A stretch of DNA of 47,221 bases, from positions 1-47,221 of the IMG/VR virus record IMGVR_UViG_3300042384_000153, one strand, 5' to 3'. The notes beneath the pieces were generated by a model. The model did no database searches and was not told the origin of the DNA. It saw only the letters and a list, made by a program, of their open reading frames with translations. Below, one piece after another: positions 977 to 8,543 of this stretch (positions are counted from its first letter, which is position 1; each line of letters begins with the position of its first letter). Both the position numbers and the translations under genes were made by a program. Source of the DNA: a virus.

Positions 977-1178
977 AAGGTGTCTAGCTACCAGCACTAC
1001 CTGGCCCTAAACTGAGTAGTTACCCTGTCCGACTGTTTCCATCTGGTACGAAACAATAAAACCCCTACGTATTTCTCAAGTCGCTCGGAAATGGAGCCTT
1101 GCAGTAGAACGTATGCACTGTGCCGTTATGGTATTGGCAATGACCCACTTTCATAAAGTAAAAGTGTAACCCTAGTGT
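977..1178 (-). other. 202-nt spacer in the tRNA array, possible noncoding RNA
   Basis: Lies between tRNA-Glu and the initiator-like tRNA, on the transcript expected from the promoter at 1267-1295. No convincing coding frame is present: the longest minus ATG frame has 29 codons and no ribosome binding site. Several short self-complementary segments are visible on the minus strand, for example TGCC/GGCA and ACTAC/GTAGT. T4 also encodes stable non-tRNA RNAs inside its tRNA cluster, which makes an RNA gene plausible but unproven. Confidence 0.35.
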
Positions 1179-2493: not shown

Positions 2494-2568
2494 TGGGGTG
2501 TCTAACGGGGTTCGAACCCGTGATGCAGGAATCACAATCCTGAGTGTTACCACTACACTATAGACACC
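2494..2568 (-). tRNA. tRNA-His(GTG)
   Basis: Acceptor GTGTCTA/TAGACAC with the extra G-1 (2568) paired to C73, the histidine hallmark. Anticodon loop is TTGTGAT in stem CAGGA/TCCTG. CCA is encoded at 2494-2496. Confidence 0.95.
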
Positions 2569-2658
2569 ATAGAGGTTGCTGTTTTACCATTAAACTACCG
2601 TAGGCTGCTATTTCGCTTGACCTACAAGCTGGACTCGAACCAGCAAAGCAACGTAAAC
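2569..2658 (-). tRNA. Circularly permuted tRNA gene (identity uncertain)
   Basis: The 90 nt lie exactly between the CCA of tRNA-Gly(GCC) and G-1 of tRNA-His, in the order of a tRNA opened in its anticodon loop. First comes the 3' anticodon strand GTTGC, a 3-nt variable segment, T arm GCTGG-TTCGAGT-CCAGC and 3' acceptor strand TTGTAGG. A 16-nt linker (2605-2620) follows, then 5' acceptor strand CCTACGG, TA, D arm GTTT-AATGGTA-AAAC, A26 and 5' anticodon strand GCAAC. All helices pair fully: acceptor 7/7 with two G-U, D 4/4, anticodon 5/5, T 5/5. U8, A9, the D-loop GG and the T loop are canonical. Flanking anticodon-loop pieces are CTCTAT and GTTTAC; joining with trimming gives mostly Lys (UUU or CUU) or amber (CUA) anticodons. 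No CCA is encoded, unlike every neighbour. Confidence 0.75.
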
Positions 2659-2732
2659 TGGAGCGGGTAGCGAGAATTGAACTCGCAATTCAACTTTGGC
2701 AAAGTCGTAGGTTACCATTACATCATACCCGC
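2659..2732 (-). tRNA. tRNA-Gly(GCC)
   Basis: Acceptor GCGGGTA/TACCCGC, anticodon stem CGACT/AGTTG with loop TTGCCAA, U73, CCA encoded. Confidence 0.95.
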
Positions 2733-2741
2733 ATTATAATC

Positions 2742-2810
2742 TTACTGAGCAGTAATATTTTCATTGATTTAGTCAGTTTTGACTAGAAATGTTACTGAGC
2801 AGTAATATTT
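2742..2810. repeat. 19-bp direct repeat of a near-palindrome between tRNAs
   Basis: TTACTGAGCAGTAATATTT occurs at 2742-2760 and again at 2792-2810, 50 bp apart. Each copy contains the inverted repeat TTACTG-AG-CAGTAA. A further small inverted repeat, AGTCA/TGACT, lies between them at 2771-2784. The second copy abuts the CCA of tRNA-Arg(TCG). It could be an operator, a processing signal or a trace of tRNA insertion or deletion. Confidence 0.8.
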
Positions 2811-2884
2811 GGAGCCCTGTGAGGGAATCGAACCCCCATCCTGAGTTTCGAAGACTCTAATTCTATCCGTTGAACTAACAGGGC
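2810..2884 (-). tRNA. tRNA-Arg(TCG)
   Basis: Acceptor GCCCTGT/ACAGGGC, anticodon stem AGAGT/ACTCA-type with loop CTTCGAA, CCA encoded. Confidence 0.92.
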
Positions 2885-2887
2885 ATT

Positions 2888-2964
2888 TGGAGCAACGGGT
2901 CGGATTTGAACCGACGTACAAAGGATTTGCAGTCCCTGCCATTGGGCCACTCTGGTACCGTTGC
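2888..2964 (-). tRNA. tRNA-Cys(GCA)
   Basis: Acceptor GCAACGG/CCGTTGC, T loop TTCAAAT, anticodon loop CTGCAAA and U73 typical of tRNA-Cys. CCA is encoded. Confidence 0.92.
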
Positions 2965-2979
2965 GTAATGTACATAATT

Positions 2980-3015
2980 ATGTATATTAAAGGTTTTTAT
3001 ATGTTTAATATACAT
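2980..3015. repeat. 12-bp perfect inverted repeat
   Basis: ATGTATATTAAA at 2980-2991 is perfectly repeated in inverse at 3004-3015, with a 12-nt loop, in the 69-nt spacer between tRNA-Cys and tRNA-Trp. A second palindrome, TACATAATTATGTA, lies at 2971-2984. There is no T-run, so an RNA-processing or pausing hairpin is likelier than a terminator. Confidence 0.75.
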
Positions 3016-3033
3016 CTTTATATACTTTATGTT

Positions 3034-3107
3034 TGGCTCCGGTGGAGAGAATCGAACTCCCACTAATGGTTTTGGAGACCATCGCACTGCCATTATACTA
3101 CACCGGA
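3034..3107 (-). tRNA. tRNA-Trp(CCA)
   Basis: Acceptor TCCGGTG/CACCGGA, anticodon stem ATGGT/ACCAT with loop CTCCAAA, G73, CCA encoded. Confidence 0.94.
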
Positions 3108-3112
3108 ATATT

Positions 3113-3188
3113 TGGCTGGCAAACCTGGGCTCGAACCAGGGACACGCGGATTAACAGTCCGCTGCTCTACCAACTGAGCTATATGCCA
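3113..3188 (-). tRNA. tRNA-Asn(GTT)
   Basis: Acceptor TGGCATA/TTTGCCA with one mismatch, D arm GCTC/GAGC, anticodon loop CTGTTAA in stem GCGGA/TCCGC, G73, CCA encoded. Confidence 0.95.
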
Positions 3189-3213
3189 AAAAAACTACTA
3201 AAGGATTTAAAAC

Positions 3214-3290
3214 TGGCCTGCCCAGAGAGATTCGAACTCCCGACACCAAAGGTAGAAGCTTTGTGCTCTATCCAGCTGAGCTATGGGCAG
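3214..3290 (-). tRNA. tRNA-Arg(TCT)
   Basis: Acceptor CTGCCCA/TGGGCAG, D arm GCTC/GAGC, anticodon stem CAAAG/CTTTG with loop CTTCTAC, G73, CCA encoded. Confidence 0.95.
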
Positions 3291-3298
3291 AGAAACTT

Positions 3299-3375
3299 TG
3301 GCGCGGTGTATGGGGCTCGAACCCACGGCCTCCAACGTGACAGGCTGGCGCTCTAACCAACTGAGCTAACACCGC
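3299..3375 (-). tRNA. tRNA-Asp(GTC)
   Basis: Acceptor GCGGTGT/ACACCGC, anticodon loop CTGTCAC, G73 as expected for tRNA-Asp, CCA encoded. Confidence 0.95.
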
Positions 3376-3380
3376 ATTAC

Positions 3381-3464
3381 TGGTGGAGTGTCCTGGGATC
3401 GAACCAGGCGTGCCATAGGCGGCGGATTTACAGTCCACTGCATCACCGTTGATGCTTCCACTCC
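3381..3464 (-). tRNA. tRNA-Tyr(GTA)
   Basis: Class II tRNA with a long variable arm. Acceptor GGAGTGG, with a mismatch near its base, pairs with ACACTCC; anticodon loop CTGTAAA; T arm CCTGG/CCAGG; A73 and encoded CCA. It is the first tRNA of the long run. Confidence 0.93.
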
Positions 3465-3486: not shown

Positions 3487-3558
3487 TATAATAAAATACA
3501 CTGGTTGACCCTTGAAATCAGAAGACGCTTTGCTCTTGACGCAGTGTACTTTATTATA
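3487..3558. repeat. 17-bp inverted repeat upstream of tRNA-Tyr
   Basis: The arm at 3487-3503 (TATAATAAAATACACTG) pairs with 3542-3558 through 16 Watson-Crick pairs and one G-T, with a 38-nt loop. Both arms contain a TATAAT hexamer, facing opposite directions. The minus-strand TATAAT (3558-3553) is preceded by TG at the extended -10 position and could drive the tRNA-Tyr transcript. The remainder of the 3465-3660 spacer has no credible frame; minus CTCG-GAAA-CGAG (about 3640-3653) forms a tetraloop hairpin. Confidence 0.7.
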
Positions 3559-3660
3559 ACAAGTATTTTCTGTTCACATAAGAACATGCCATCCACTTGT
3601 CCGCCCGTTTACAAACTATCTTTAATGTGCCTTGTTGGACCTCGTTTCCGAGACACATAA

Positions 3661-3699: not shown

Positions 3700-3728
3700 T
3701 TAAAATTAACTTATATTATATATAAACT

Positions 3729-3860
3729 CTAATTAAGATCCCCATAGATACTATTCGGTGTGCGATCATTGCCTAATGTCTCAATCGCTGACCAATAAGA
3801 CATCGTGGCAAGTGCGCACACTTGTTTTGATATATTAAATTGATGTAGCTGGTTAAACAT
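3729..3860 (-). CDS. Putative 43-residue protein in its own transcription unit
   Basis: The minus frame runs from the ATG at 3860 to a TAG at 3729-3731. It encodes a small protein with one Cys and one Trp, ending in TPNSIYGDLN; I do not recognise it. AAAGGA lies 14 nt upstream. A six-codon frame starting at 3873 ends right after this ATG, so re-initiation is possible. A perfect sigma70 promoter (3904-3932) and terminator (3661-3699) bracket it as a transcript of about 235 nt. The alternative is that the RNA itself is the product. Confidence 0.5.
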   Translation of the reverse strand: MFNQLHQFNISKQVCALATMSYWSAIETLGNDRTPNSIYGDLN

Positions 3861-3903: not shown

Positions 3904-3932
3904 ATTATACAGTCTATTTATTAGCCTGTCAA
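3904..3932 (-). promoter_or_regulatory. Sigma70 promoter with an embedded late-like element
   Basis: TTGACA at 3932-3927, 17-nt spacer and TATAAT at 3909-3904. The spacer itself contains AATAAATA. The start would lie near 3897. Confidence 0.88.
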
Positions 3933-4150: not shown

Positions 4151-4229
4151 TGGTGGGCCTGGTGAGATTTGAACTCACTGTCTTTCGGTTATGAGCCGAG
4201 TGCTTATACCAGGTTTAAGCTTCGGGCCC
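4151..4229 (-). tRNA. tRNA-Met or tRNA-Ile with CAT anticodon
   Basis: Acceptor GGGCCCG/CAGGCCC, D arm GCTT/AAGC, anticodon loop CTCATAA in stem CTCGG/CCGAA, T arm GTGAG/CTCAC, CCA encoded. The first pair is G-C, so it is not an initiator. Sequence alone does not separate elongator Met from lysidine-modified Ile. Confidence 0.9.
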
Positions 4230-8296: not shown

Positions 8297-8543
8297 TTTT
8301 TAGGGTCCTAAATAAGAAATCTCTACTAAAATCACAATAAGCCTCTATAAATTTAGCAGTACTGCGTAGTTCTTTAGATTGATCATTGAGTAATCTGCTA
8401 TTGCGTATCTCTTGTGCTAGTATATCAACTTGATTTTTAGCATGGGCATATCCACTTACATCTATAATATCAACAGCAGTCGGGCAACCTAATTGTTTTA
8501 TTTGTTCCCACTCTTCTAAGAGTTCGTTAATTGATTGAGGCAT
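8274..8543 (-). CDS. Unknown 89-residue protein in the uvsXY operon
   Basis: Mostly helical and highly charged, with a C-terminal basic tail. No recognisable motif. It overlaps uvsY by 17 nt and the methyltransferase by 23 nt, so it sits in a tightly coupled run. It occupies the place of the small uvsY-adjacent genes of T4, but homology is not evident. Confidence 0.7.
   Translation of the reverse strand: MPQSINELLEEWEQIKQLGCPTAVDIIDVSGYAHAKNQVDILAQEIRNSRLLNDQSKELRSTAKFIEAYCDFSRDFLFRTLKNDRKTQS

What the first reader, a model, noticed from the sequence alone, without database searches (positions are those of the whole stretch)
2569..2658. Circularly permuted tRNA gene nested without gaps between tRNA-Gly and tRNA-His
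Seen directly: all four cloverleaf helices (7, 4, 5 and 5 bp) pair perfectly only if the 3' half is placed after the 5' half, and conserved U8/A9, D-loop GG and T-loop bases are in register. The unit begins right after the CCA of the upstream tRNA and ends at G-1 of the next, so ordinary tRNA processing should release exactly this RNA. Permuted tRNA genes are established in some red and green algae and archaea, where they mature by ligation at the anticodon loop. In T4-like phages the RNA ligase and polynucleotide kinase that repair cut anticodon loops could do the joining. Inference: mature product, nicked decoy for anticodon nucleases, or relic. The intact helices argue against a relic.
Basis: partly seen in the sequence, partly recalled or inferred. 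Interest (0 to 1): 0.92.

Follow-up and report, generated by a model that had tools for sequence, protein, structure and literature searches.

The report
Phage tRNA-mimic RNA, YrlA-like
A giant freshwater phage carries, wedged between two ordinary tRNA genes, a 90-base RNA gene with the parts of a tRNA in rotated order; comparison with related phages suggests it is not a scrambled tRNA to be spliced but a stand-alone tRNA look-alike of the kind known as bacterial Y RNAs, with a short conserved loop where a tRNA would carry its amino acid.

Summary
Window 2658→2569 (minus strand) encodes the 3' half of a tRNA followed by its 5' half, filling the space between tRNA-Gly(gcc) and tRNA-His. All four helices form, and no shuffled control reaches its score.

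The interpretation (permuted tRNA gene matured by ligation) is not the best one. A related phage (L245, 329-kb contig) carries a diverged copy after tRNA-Tyr. The 14-nt "spacer" CAAGCGAAATAGCA, which tRNA maturation would discard, is identical, although the rest differs by about a quarter. Two stem pairs changed on both sides, and the acceptor stem lost one pair from both strands. The L245 copy cannot yield U33 or the same anticodon by any join. No RNA ligase was found in the contigs searched.

The rotated order is that of the tRNA-like module of YrlA Y RNAs, the only Rfam hit at either site (E 0.009 and 0.0024, far below gathering score). Streptomyces phages with a Ro-like gene carry RNAs of the same order, and these also reorder into "tRNAs". 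The window unit lacks the Ro-binding stem, and no Ro gene was found.

Best reading: a Ro-less, YrlA-like tRNA mimic carried as a tRNA-array cassette. Its target is unknown; evidence rests on two lineages.

The parts
2569..2658 (-). whole tRNA-like unit, from directly after the tRNA-Gly CCA to directly before G-1 of tRNA-His
   Evidence: core scored by the scanner at 54 against at most 41 in shuffles
2653..2658 (-). 5' single-stranded tail GTTTAC (ATTTA in L245, also directly after a tRNA CCA)
2648..2652 (-). closing ('anticodon') stem, first strand GTTGC
   Evidence: C-G to U-A change on both sides in L245
2628..2644 (-). T-arm GCTGG-TTCGAGT-CCAGC
   Evidence: C-G to U-A change on both sides, but one U-A pair is broken to C.A in L245
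2620..2627 (-). acceptor stem, first strand TTGTAGGT (tRNA 3' strand)
2606..2619 (-). acceptor-capping loop CAAGCGAAATAGCA, identical in the diverged L245 copy
2598..2605 (-). acceptor stem, second strand GCCTACGG (tRNA 5' strand)
2596..2597 (-). T8-A9 linker
2581..2595 (-). D-arm GTTT-AATGGTA-AAAC
2575..2579 (-). closing ('anticodon') stem, second strand GCAAC
2569..2574 (-). 3' single-stranded tail CTCTAT (not conserved in L245); AT at 2569-2570 matches the Gly-His spacer of relatives
2659..2732 (-). tRNA-Gly(gcc), upstream neighbour; adjacent to tRNA-His without the unit in relatives
2494..2567 (-). tRNA-His(gtg), downstream neighbour
3904..3932 (-). perfect sigma-70-like promoter TTGACA-17-TATAAT upstream of the tRNA array; likely start of the transcript that contains the unit (inferred)
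   Evidence: consensus match only

Best explanation
The unit is a small noncoding RNA that mimics a tRNA and has the topology of the tRNA-like module of YrlA-type bacterial Y RNAs. It has a T-arm, an acceptor stem closed by a loop, and a D-arm, all held together by what would be the anticodon stem. It is not spliced into a tRNA. Shown from sequence: the order of parts, the helices, a diverged second copy elsewhere in a related phage's tRNA array, and the identical 14-nt cap loop. Inferred: it is transcribed with the tRNA array; 3'-end processing of tRNA-Gly and RNase P cleavage at tRNA-His release it; T-loop and D-loop form a tRNA-like elbow that a host protein recognises (for YrlA, PNPase, TruB and DusA are the reported partners); and the cap loop gives it specificity. 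It would thus act as a decoy or tether for a host RNA-processing factor. Unlike classical Y RNAs it lacks the long end-to-end stem that binds Ro, and no phage Ro gene was found.
For: Order and helices. L245, found by structure without using the loop sequence, has the identical 14-nt loop and sits directly after a tRNA CCA. Two pairs changed on both sides, a one-pair loss from both acceptor strands, one broken pair. YrlA (RF02553) is the only Rfam match at both sites, E 0.0092 and 0.0024, aligned in the same order. RNAs of the same order with a long outer stem occur in Streptomyces Gilsonvirus phages, of which Kenrey was checked to carry a Ro-like gene. The same reorder test makes those RNAs 'tRNAs' too. 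No U33 by any join in L245. No Rnl1/Rnl2 in the L245 or L009 contigs, no RtcB in L009. The neighbouring tRNAs are adjacent in relatives without the unit, so it is gained and lost like a tRNA cassette.
Against: YrlA scores (21.7 and 24-26 bits) are far below the gathering score of 69, and ordinary tRNA pairs in the same arrays reach about 21 bits. There is no Ro-binding outer stem in the window. No TROVE/Ro gene was found in L009, L245 or any relative searched. Only two independent lineages have the unit. The L245 copy folds poorly on its own and one T-stem pair is broken. All stem substitutions are transitions; a transitions-only neutral simulation keeps pairing this well in 11% of runs. Given the divergence elsewhere, the loop identity alone has a probability of about 0.014 (my arithmetic). 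No function or target is shown.
Confidence: 0.6

Rival explanations
1. A true circularly permuted tRNA gene: flanking tRNA processing frees the RNA, the anticodon-loop ends are trimmed and ligated, and RNase P plus a 3' nuclease remove the acceptor spacer to give a working tRNA.
For: Perfect permuted cloverleaf; ARAGORN accepts the rearranged window unit with U33 and anticodon TTT, CTT or CTA. The algal pathway is of this kind (PMC3978253).
Against: The spacer is conserved and the loop ends are not. L245 cannot give U33 in any join. Direct joining gives a 12-nt loop. No CCA. No Rnl1/Rnl2/RtcB found in L009, no Rnl1/Rnl2 in L245, though contigs may be incomplete and host ligases exist.
Confidence: 0.12
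2. A classical Y RNA that works with a Ro (Rsr) protein supplied by the host.
For: Same module order as YrlA. The YrlA alignment in L245 extends into weak outer pairs. Phage Y RNAs in a genome with a Ro-like gene score only 28-29 bits themselves.
Against: No outer stem in the window; the ends are fixed by flanking tRNAs. No Ro gene in phage contigs up to 364 kb. Host unknown.
Confidence: 0.1
3. A relic: leftover halves of rearranged tRNA genes (for example after tandem duplication and deletions of a tRNA-Ile(tat)-like gene), no longer functional.
For: The 5' half is closest to tRNA-Ile(tat) of relatives. Phage tRNA arrays rearrange freely. The L245 copy folds weakly. A transitions-only neutral model is not excluded (11%).
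Against: All helices intact in the window; two pairs changed on both sides and a matched one-pair loss in L245; random substitutions keep pairing this well in 82 of 200,000 runs; loop 14/14 identical; retained in two lineages at different places.
Confidence: 0.15
4. Chance resemblance, or the false 'permuted' signal that tandem near-identical tRNAs give.
For: A Lys-Lys tandem (L185) scores 53 by this mechanism.
Against: Complete, unrelated tRNAs lie directly on both sides, so no missing halves exist; shuffles never come close; conserved copy in L245.
Confidence: 0.02

Closest known systems
YrlA-type bacterial Y RNA (Rfam RF02553)
   Same: Same order of parts (T-arm, capped acceptor stem, T-A linker, D-arm, closing stem), tRNA-elbow sequences, and presence of such RNAs in phages (PMC7765460 reports this from Sim and Wolin 2018).
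   Different: No long end-pairing (Ro-binding) stem, no Ro gene found, score far below the gathering threshold, longer conserved 14-nt cap loop, embedded without gaps inside a tRNA array.
Y-RNA-like RNAs of Streptomyces Gilsonvirus phages (L206-L213) and of contigs L161 and L138
   Same: Rotated tRNA-like module, unannotated in the phage records, inside or beside tRNA arrays.
   Different: They have 6-8 nt caps and extended outer stems; a Ro-like gene (Kenrey) or an RtcB gene (L161) lies within about 6 kb.
Circularly permuted tRNA genes of red and green algae, nucleomorphs and Thermofilum pendens (PMC3978253)
   Same: 3' half before 5' half, break in the anticodon loop as in the green-algal type.
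   Different: There the spacer (1-74 bp) is removed, splicing endonuclease motifs mark the ends and a tRNA results; here the spacer is conserved, the loop ends are not, and no ligase was found.
tmRNA
   Same: tRNA-like part, known circularly permuted forms in some bacteria (own knowledge).
   Different: No Rfam tmRNA or ARAGORN tmRNA match, no tag reading frame, only 90 nt.

Membership tests
YrlA / bacterial Y RNA | tRNA-like module in the order T-arm, capped acceptor, D-arm | tested here: met
   cmscan alignments to RF02553
YrlA / bacterial Y RNA | score at or above the Rfam gathering threshold (69 bits) | tested here: not met
   21.7 bits (window), 24.1-25.9 bits (L245); Kenrey RNAs, in a genome with a Ro gene, also reach only 28-29 bits
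YrlA / bacterial Y RNA | long stem formed by 5' and 3' ends that binds Ro/Rsr | tested here: not met
   no pairing of GTTTAC with CTCTAT; fold
YrlA / bacterial Y RNA | Ro (TROVE) gene in the same genome | tested here: not met
   none in L009, L245 or the other contigs searched; contigs may be incomplete
YrlA / bacterial Y RNA | binding of Ro, PNPase, TruB or DusA | not testable with these tools
   needs biochemistry
Circularly permuted tRNA gene | 3' half precedes 5' half and the cloverleaf is complete after reordering | tested here: met
   also met by Y-RNA controls, so not discriminating
Circularly permuted tRNA gene | mature 7-nt anticodon loop with U33 and a conserved anticodon | tested here: not met
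   direct join is 12 nt; L245 gives no U33 in any join; possible in the window only after trimming
Circularly permuted tRNA gene | spacer is removed and unconstrained | tested here: not met
   14/14 identity against about 26% divergence elsewhere
Circularly permuted tRNA gene | RNA ligase available | tested here: inconclusive
   no Rnl1, Rnl2 or RtcB in L009, no Rnl1 or Rnl2 in L245; RtcB not searched in L245; host unknown
Circularly permuted tRNA gene | circular or joined RNA and aminoacylated product | not testable with these tools
   needs RNA from infected cells
tmRNA | Rfam or ARAGORN tmRNA match and tag frame | tested here: not met

The most novel reading that the evidence does not exclude
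A circularly permuted tRNA gene in a bacterial virus that really is matured into a tRNA (or circular tRNA) by trimming and ligation at the anticodon loop, using a host ligase; none was found described for phages or bacteria in the papers searched.
Probability: 0.1. Interest if true: 0.9.

Novelty: new variant of a known kind. Interest (0 to 1): 0.52.

Why it matters
If right, phage tRNA arrays carry not only tRNAs but also tRNA look-alikes that are inherited as cassettes and released by ordinary tRNA processing. This would extend Y-RNA-like RNAs to phages without a Ro gene, reduced to the tRNA-mimic part plus a constant loop, and give a small, testable system to ask what such mimics do to host RNA metabolism during infection. 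It also gives a caution: Y-RNA-type modules and tandem tRNA repeats both pass the usual 'rotate it and it folds as a tRNA' test for permuted tRNA genes.

Tried and rejected
Target of the cap loop: no antisense match of more than 11 nt in L245's 329-kb contig, L009's 99.6-kb contig or the window, other than the unit itself; 11-mers are at chance level.

Wider copies: loop plus T-arm and loop plus D-arm scans of IMG/VR gave only the same two lineages. The genome-contig scan gave nine hits, none with the structure. The phage collection has no match beyond D- or T-arm stretches. Two pattern scans were mis-specified by one position and are worthless.

A covariance model from the two copies (R1) picks up many ordinary tRNA pairs at 15-40 bits, so hits below about 45 bits were ignored unless the scanner confirmed them.

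Decoy for anticodon nucleases: rejected, no closed anticodon loop. tmRNA: rejected. tRNA-Ile(tat) origin of the 5' half: suggestive only. The papers that define YrlA (Chen 2014, Sim and Wolin 2018) were not held, so YrlA facts rest on the Rfam model and on PMC8394870, PMC7790460 and PMC7765460.

Full report
WHAT IS THERE. The window is a 47-kb virus record of a T4-like myovirus: UvsX-type recombinase, terminase and tail sheath. Related contigs of 278-364 kb suggest a jumbo phage. At 2494-3464, minus strand, lies a dense tRNA array behind a perfect TTGACA-17-TATAAT site at 3932-3904. Between tRNA-Gly(gcc) (ends 2659, with CCA) and tRNA-His (starts 2567, G-1 at 2568) the sequence 2658→2569 is a tRNA in rotated order: closing stem, variable bases, T-arm, acceptor 3' strand, 14-nt loop, acceptor 5' strand, T-A, D-arm, closing stem. 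The released ends would make a 12-nt, not 7-nt, loop if joined.

IS IT CHANCE? A strict scanner gave no hit in 1.15 Mb of shuffled sequence. A loose one gave 18, best score 41 against 54. The sharper null is neighbouring ordinary tRNAs. Over 294 loci, 2,871 tRNAs and 1,498 close junctions, only a Lys-Lys tandem in L185 scored similarly, because tandem copies of one tRNA always look 'permuted'. Here the neighbours are complete Gly and His tRNAs, so that artefact is excluded.

RELATIVES. L009 and L010 are practically the same phage (one mismatch in 15.5 kb). In phages whose neighbouring protein is 81-97% identical, Gly and His are adjacent without the unit, for example with AT between CCA and GGTGTC in L011 (L011, L013, L241, L248, L254, L256 and others). 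So the unit is an insertion of about 88 nt directly after the CCA. A blind structural scan of relatives found a second copy in L245/L246/L247, a phage with a 329-kb contig, directly after the CCA of tRNA-Tyr and before tRNA-Lys; in other relatives Tyr and Lys are adjacent. The scanner used no spacer sequence, yet the 14-nt spacer CAAGCGAAATAGCA is identical. Two stem pairs changed on both sides, one acceptor pair was lost from both strands, two pairs changed on one side and one was broken. Outside the loop about 17 of 65 columns differ; with that rate 14 unchanged columns have a probability of about 0.014 (own arithmetic). Random substitution of the stems keeps at most one pair broken in 82 of 200,000 runs, but a transitions-only model does so in 11%, so conservation of the stems is moderate evidence. 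Two further scans of IMG/VR found only these two lineages.

WHY NOT A PERMUTED tRNA. In algae the spacer in the acceptor loop is removed and the anticodon-loop ends are joined (PMC3978253). Here the spacer is the constant part and the ends vary (GTTTAC/CTCTAT against ATTTA/AATTTTTG). No join of L245's ends yields U33, and ARAGORN rejects seven of eight joins. Neither copy encodes CCA. No Rnl1, Rnl2-type or RtcB ligase was found in the 99.6-kb contig, and no Rnl1 or Rnl2 in L245's 329-kb contig; contigs may be incomplete and the host is unknown.

WHAT IT RESEMBLES. The order T-arm, capped acceptor, D-arm, closing stem is that of the YrlA Y RNA model. RF02553 is the only Rfam match at both sites: window 21.7 bits, E 0.0092; L245 24.1 bits, E 0.0024. 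Both are far below the gathering score of 69, and ordinary tRNA pairs reach about 21 bits, so the score alone proves little. The same rotated module, with 6-8 nt caps and long outer stems, turned up unannotated in 14 records of Streptomyces phages. In Kenrey two copies (67105 and 68302) precede a Ro-like gene at 69062 that matches TROVE. Similar modules are in contigs L161 (with an RtcB gene about 5.4 kb away) and L138. Reordered, these also become tRNAs for ARAGORN. Published accounts describe YrlA as a stem that tethers Ro/Rsr plus a tRNA-like domain that is modified by DusA and TruB and binds PNPase (PMC8394870), and note such RNAs in phages (PMC7765460). A few jumbo phages carry TROVE proteins (PMC7824862).

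DIFFERENCES. The window unit has no outer stem and no TROVE gene was found in L009, L245 or the other relatives. It fails defining features of a Y RNA, so I do not file it as one. I claim only that it has the architecture of the YrlA tRNA-like module and probably works as a tRNA mimic.

MECHANISM (inferred). Co-transcription with the array; release by 3' processing of tRNA-Gly and RNase P at tRNA-His; folding into an elbow with a capped acceptor arm; recognition by a host factor that reads tRNA elbows, with the constant 14-nt loop as the specific contact. A search for pairing targets of the loop within the phages found nothing above chance.

VERDICT. Observation confirmed; interpretation partly supported; best reading a Ro-less, YrlA-like tRNA-mimic cassette (0.6). 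Relic (0.15), permuted tRNA (0.12) and host-Ro Y RNA (0.1) remain open, because only two lineages are known and the L245 copy folds weakly on its own.

Noticed in passing
L206:2514-2583 and 3711-3779 (Streptomyces phage Kenrey 67105-67174 and 68302-68370); also L207-L213: Two unannotated YrlA-like Y RNAs lie upstream of a gene annotated as Ro-like RNA binding protein; the first is conserved in 14 Streptomyces phage records, in those read with a long outer stem (TTCAATAG/CTATTGAA or a near variant).
   Followed up: partly
L161:8481-8551 and about 8364-8426, contig IMGVR_UViG_3300035557_000071: YrlA-like module(s) in a contig with 32 tRNAs in the stretch read, with an RtcB ligase gene about 5.4 kb downstream; no Ro gene in the 30-kb contig.
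   Followed up: partly
L138:9056-9127: Another rotated tRNA-like module with an outer stem TTGTTT/AAACAA in a tRNA-rich contig.
   Followed up: partly
L241:2137-2227, L254:719, L255:3212, L259:490, L263:2929, L264:2817: Relatives carry a 91-92 nt tRNA called Ile(tat) with a long variable arm whose loop is constant (AGATAA) while its stem varies; unusual for tRNA-Ile.
   Followed up: no
window 977-1178 (minus strand); L011:12438-12655: About 200 nt of conserved, apparently noncoding sequence next to tRNA genes (between tRNA-Met and tRNA-Glu in the window), similar in a relative; no Rfam match.
   Followed up: partly
window 3384-3464 and 4154-4229 (minus strand): Two further tRNA genes (a Tyr-like one with a long variable arm, and another) that ARAGORN missed but the Rfam tRNA model finds.
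   Followed up: no
L245:4300-4362; window about 3490-3560: Long, nearly perfect hairpins (about 20 bp in L245) near the tRNA arrays of both phages; function unknown.
   Followed up: no
window 2492-2464 (minus strand): A second perfect TTGACA-17-TATAAT promoter-like site directly after tRNA-His, probably for the downstream genes.
   Followed up: no
L185:5122-5273: Tandem tRNA-Lys(ctt) and tRNA-Lys(ttt) mimic a permuted tRNA in any rotated search; a useful false-positive control.
   Followed up: yes
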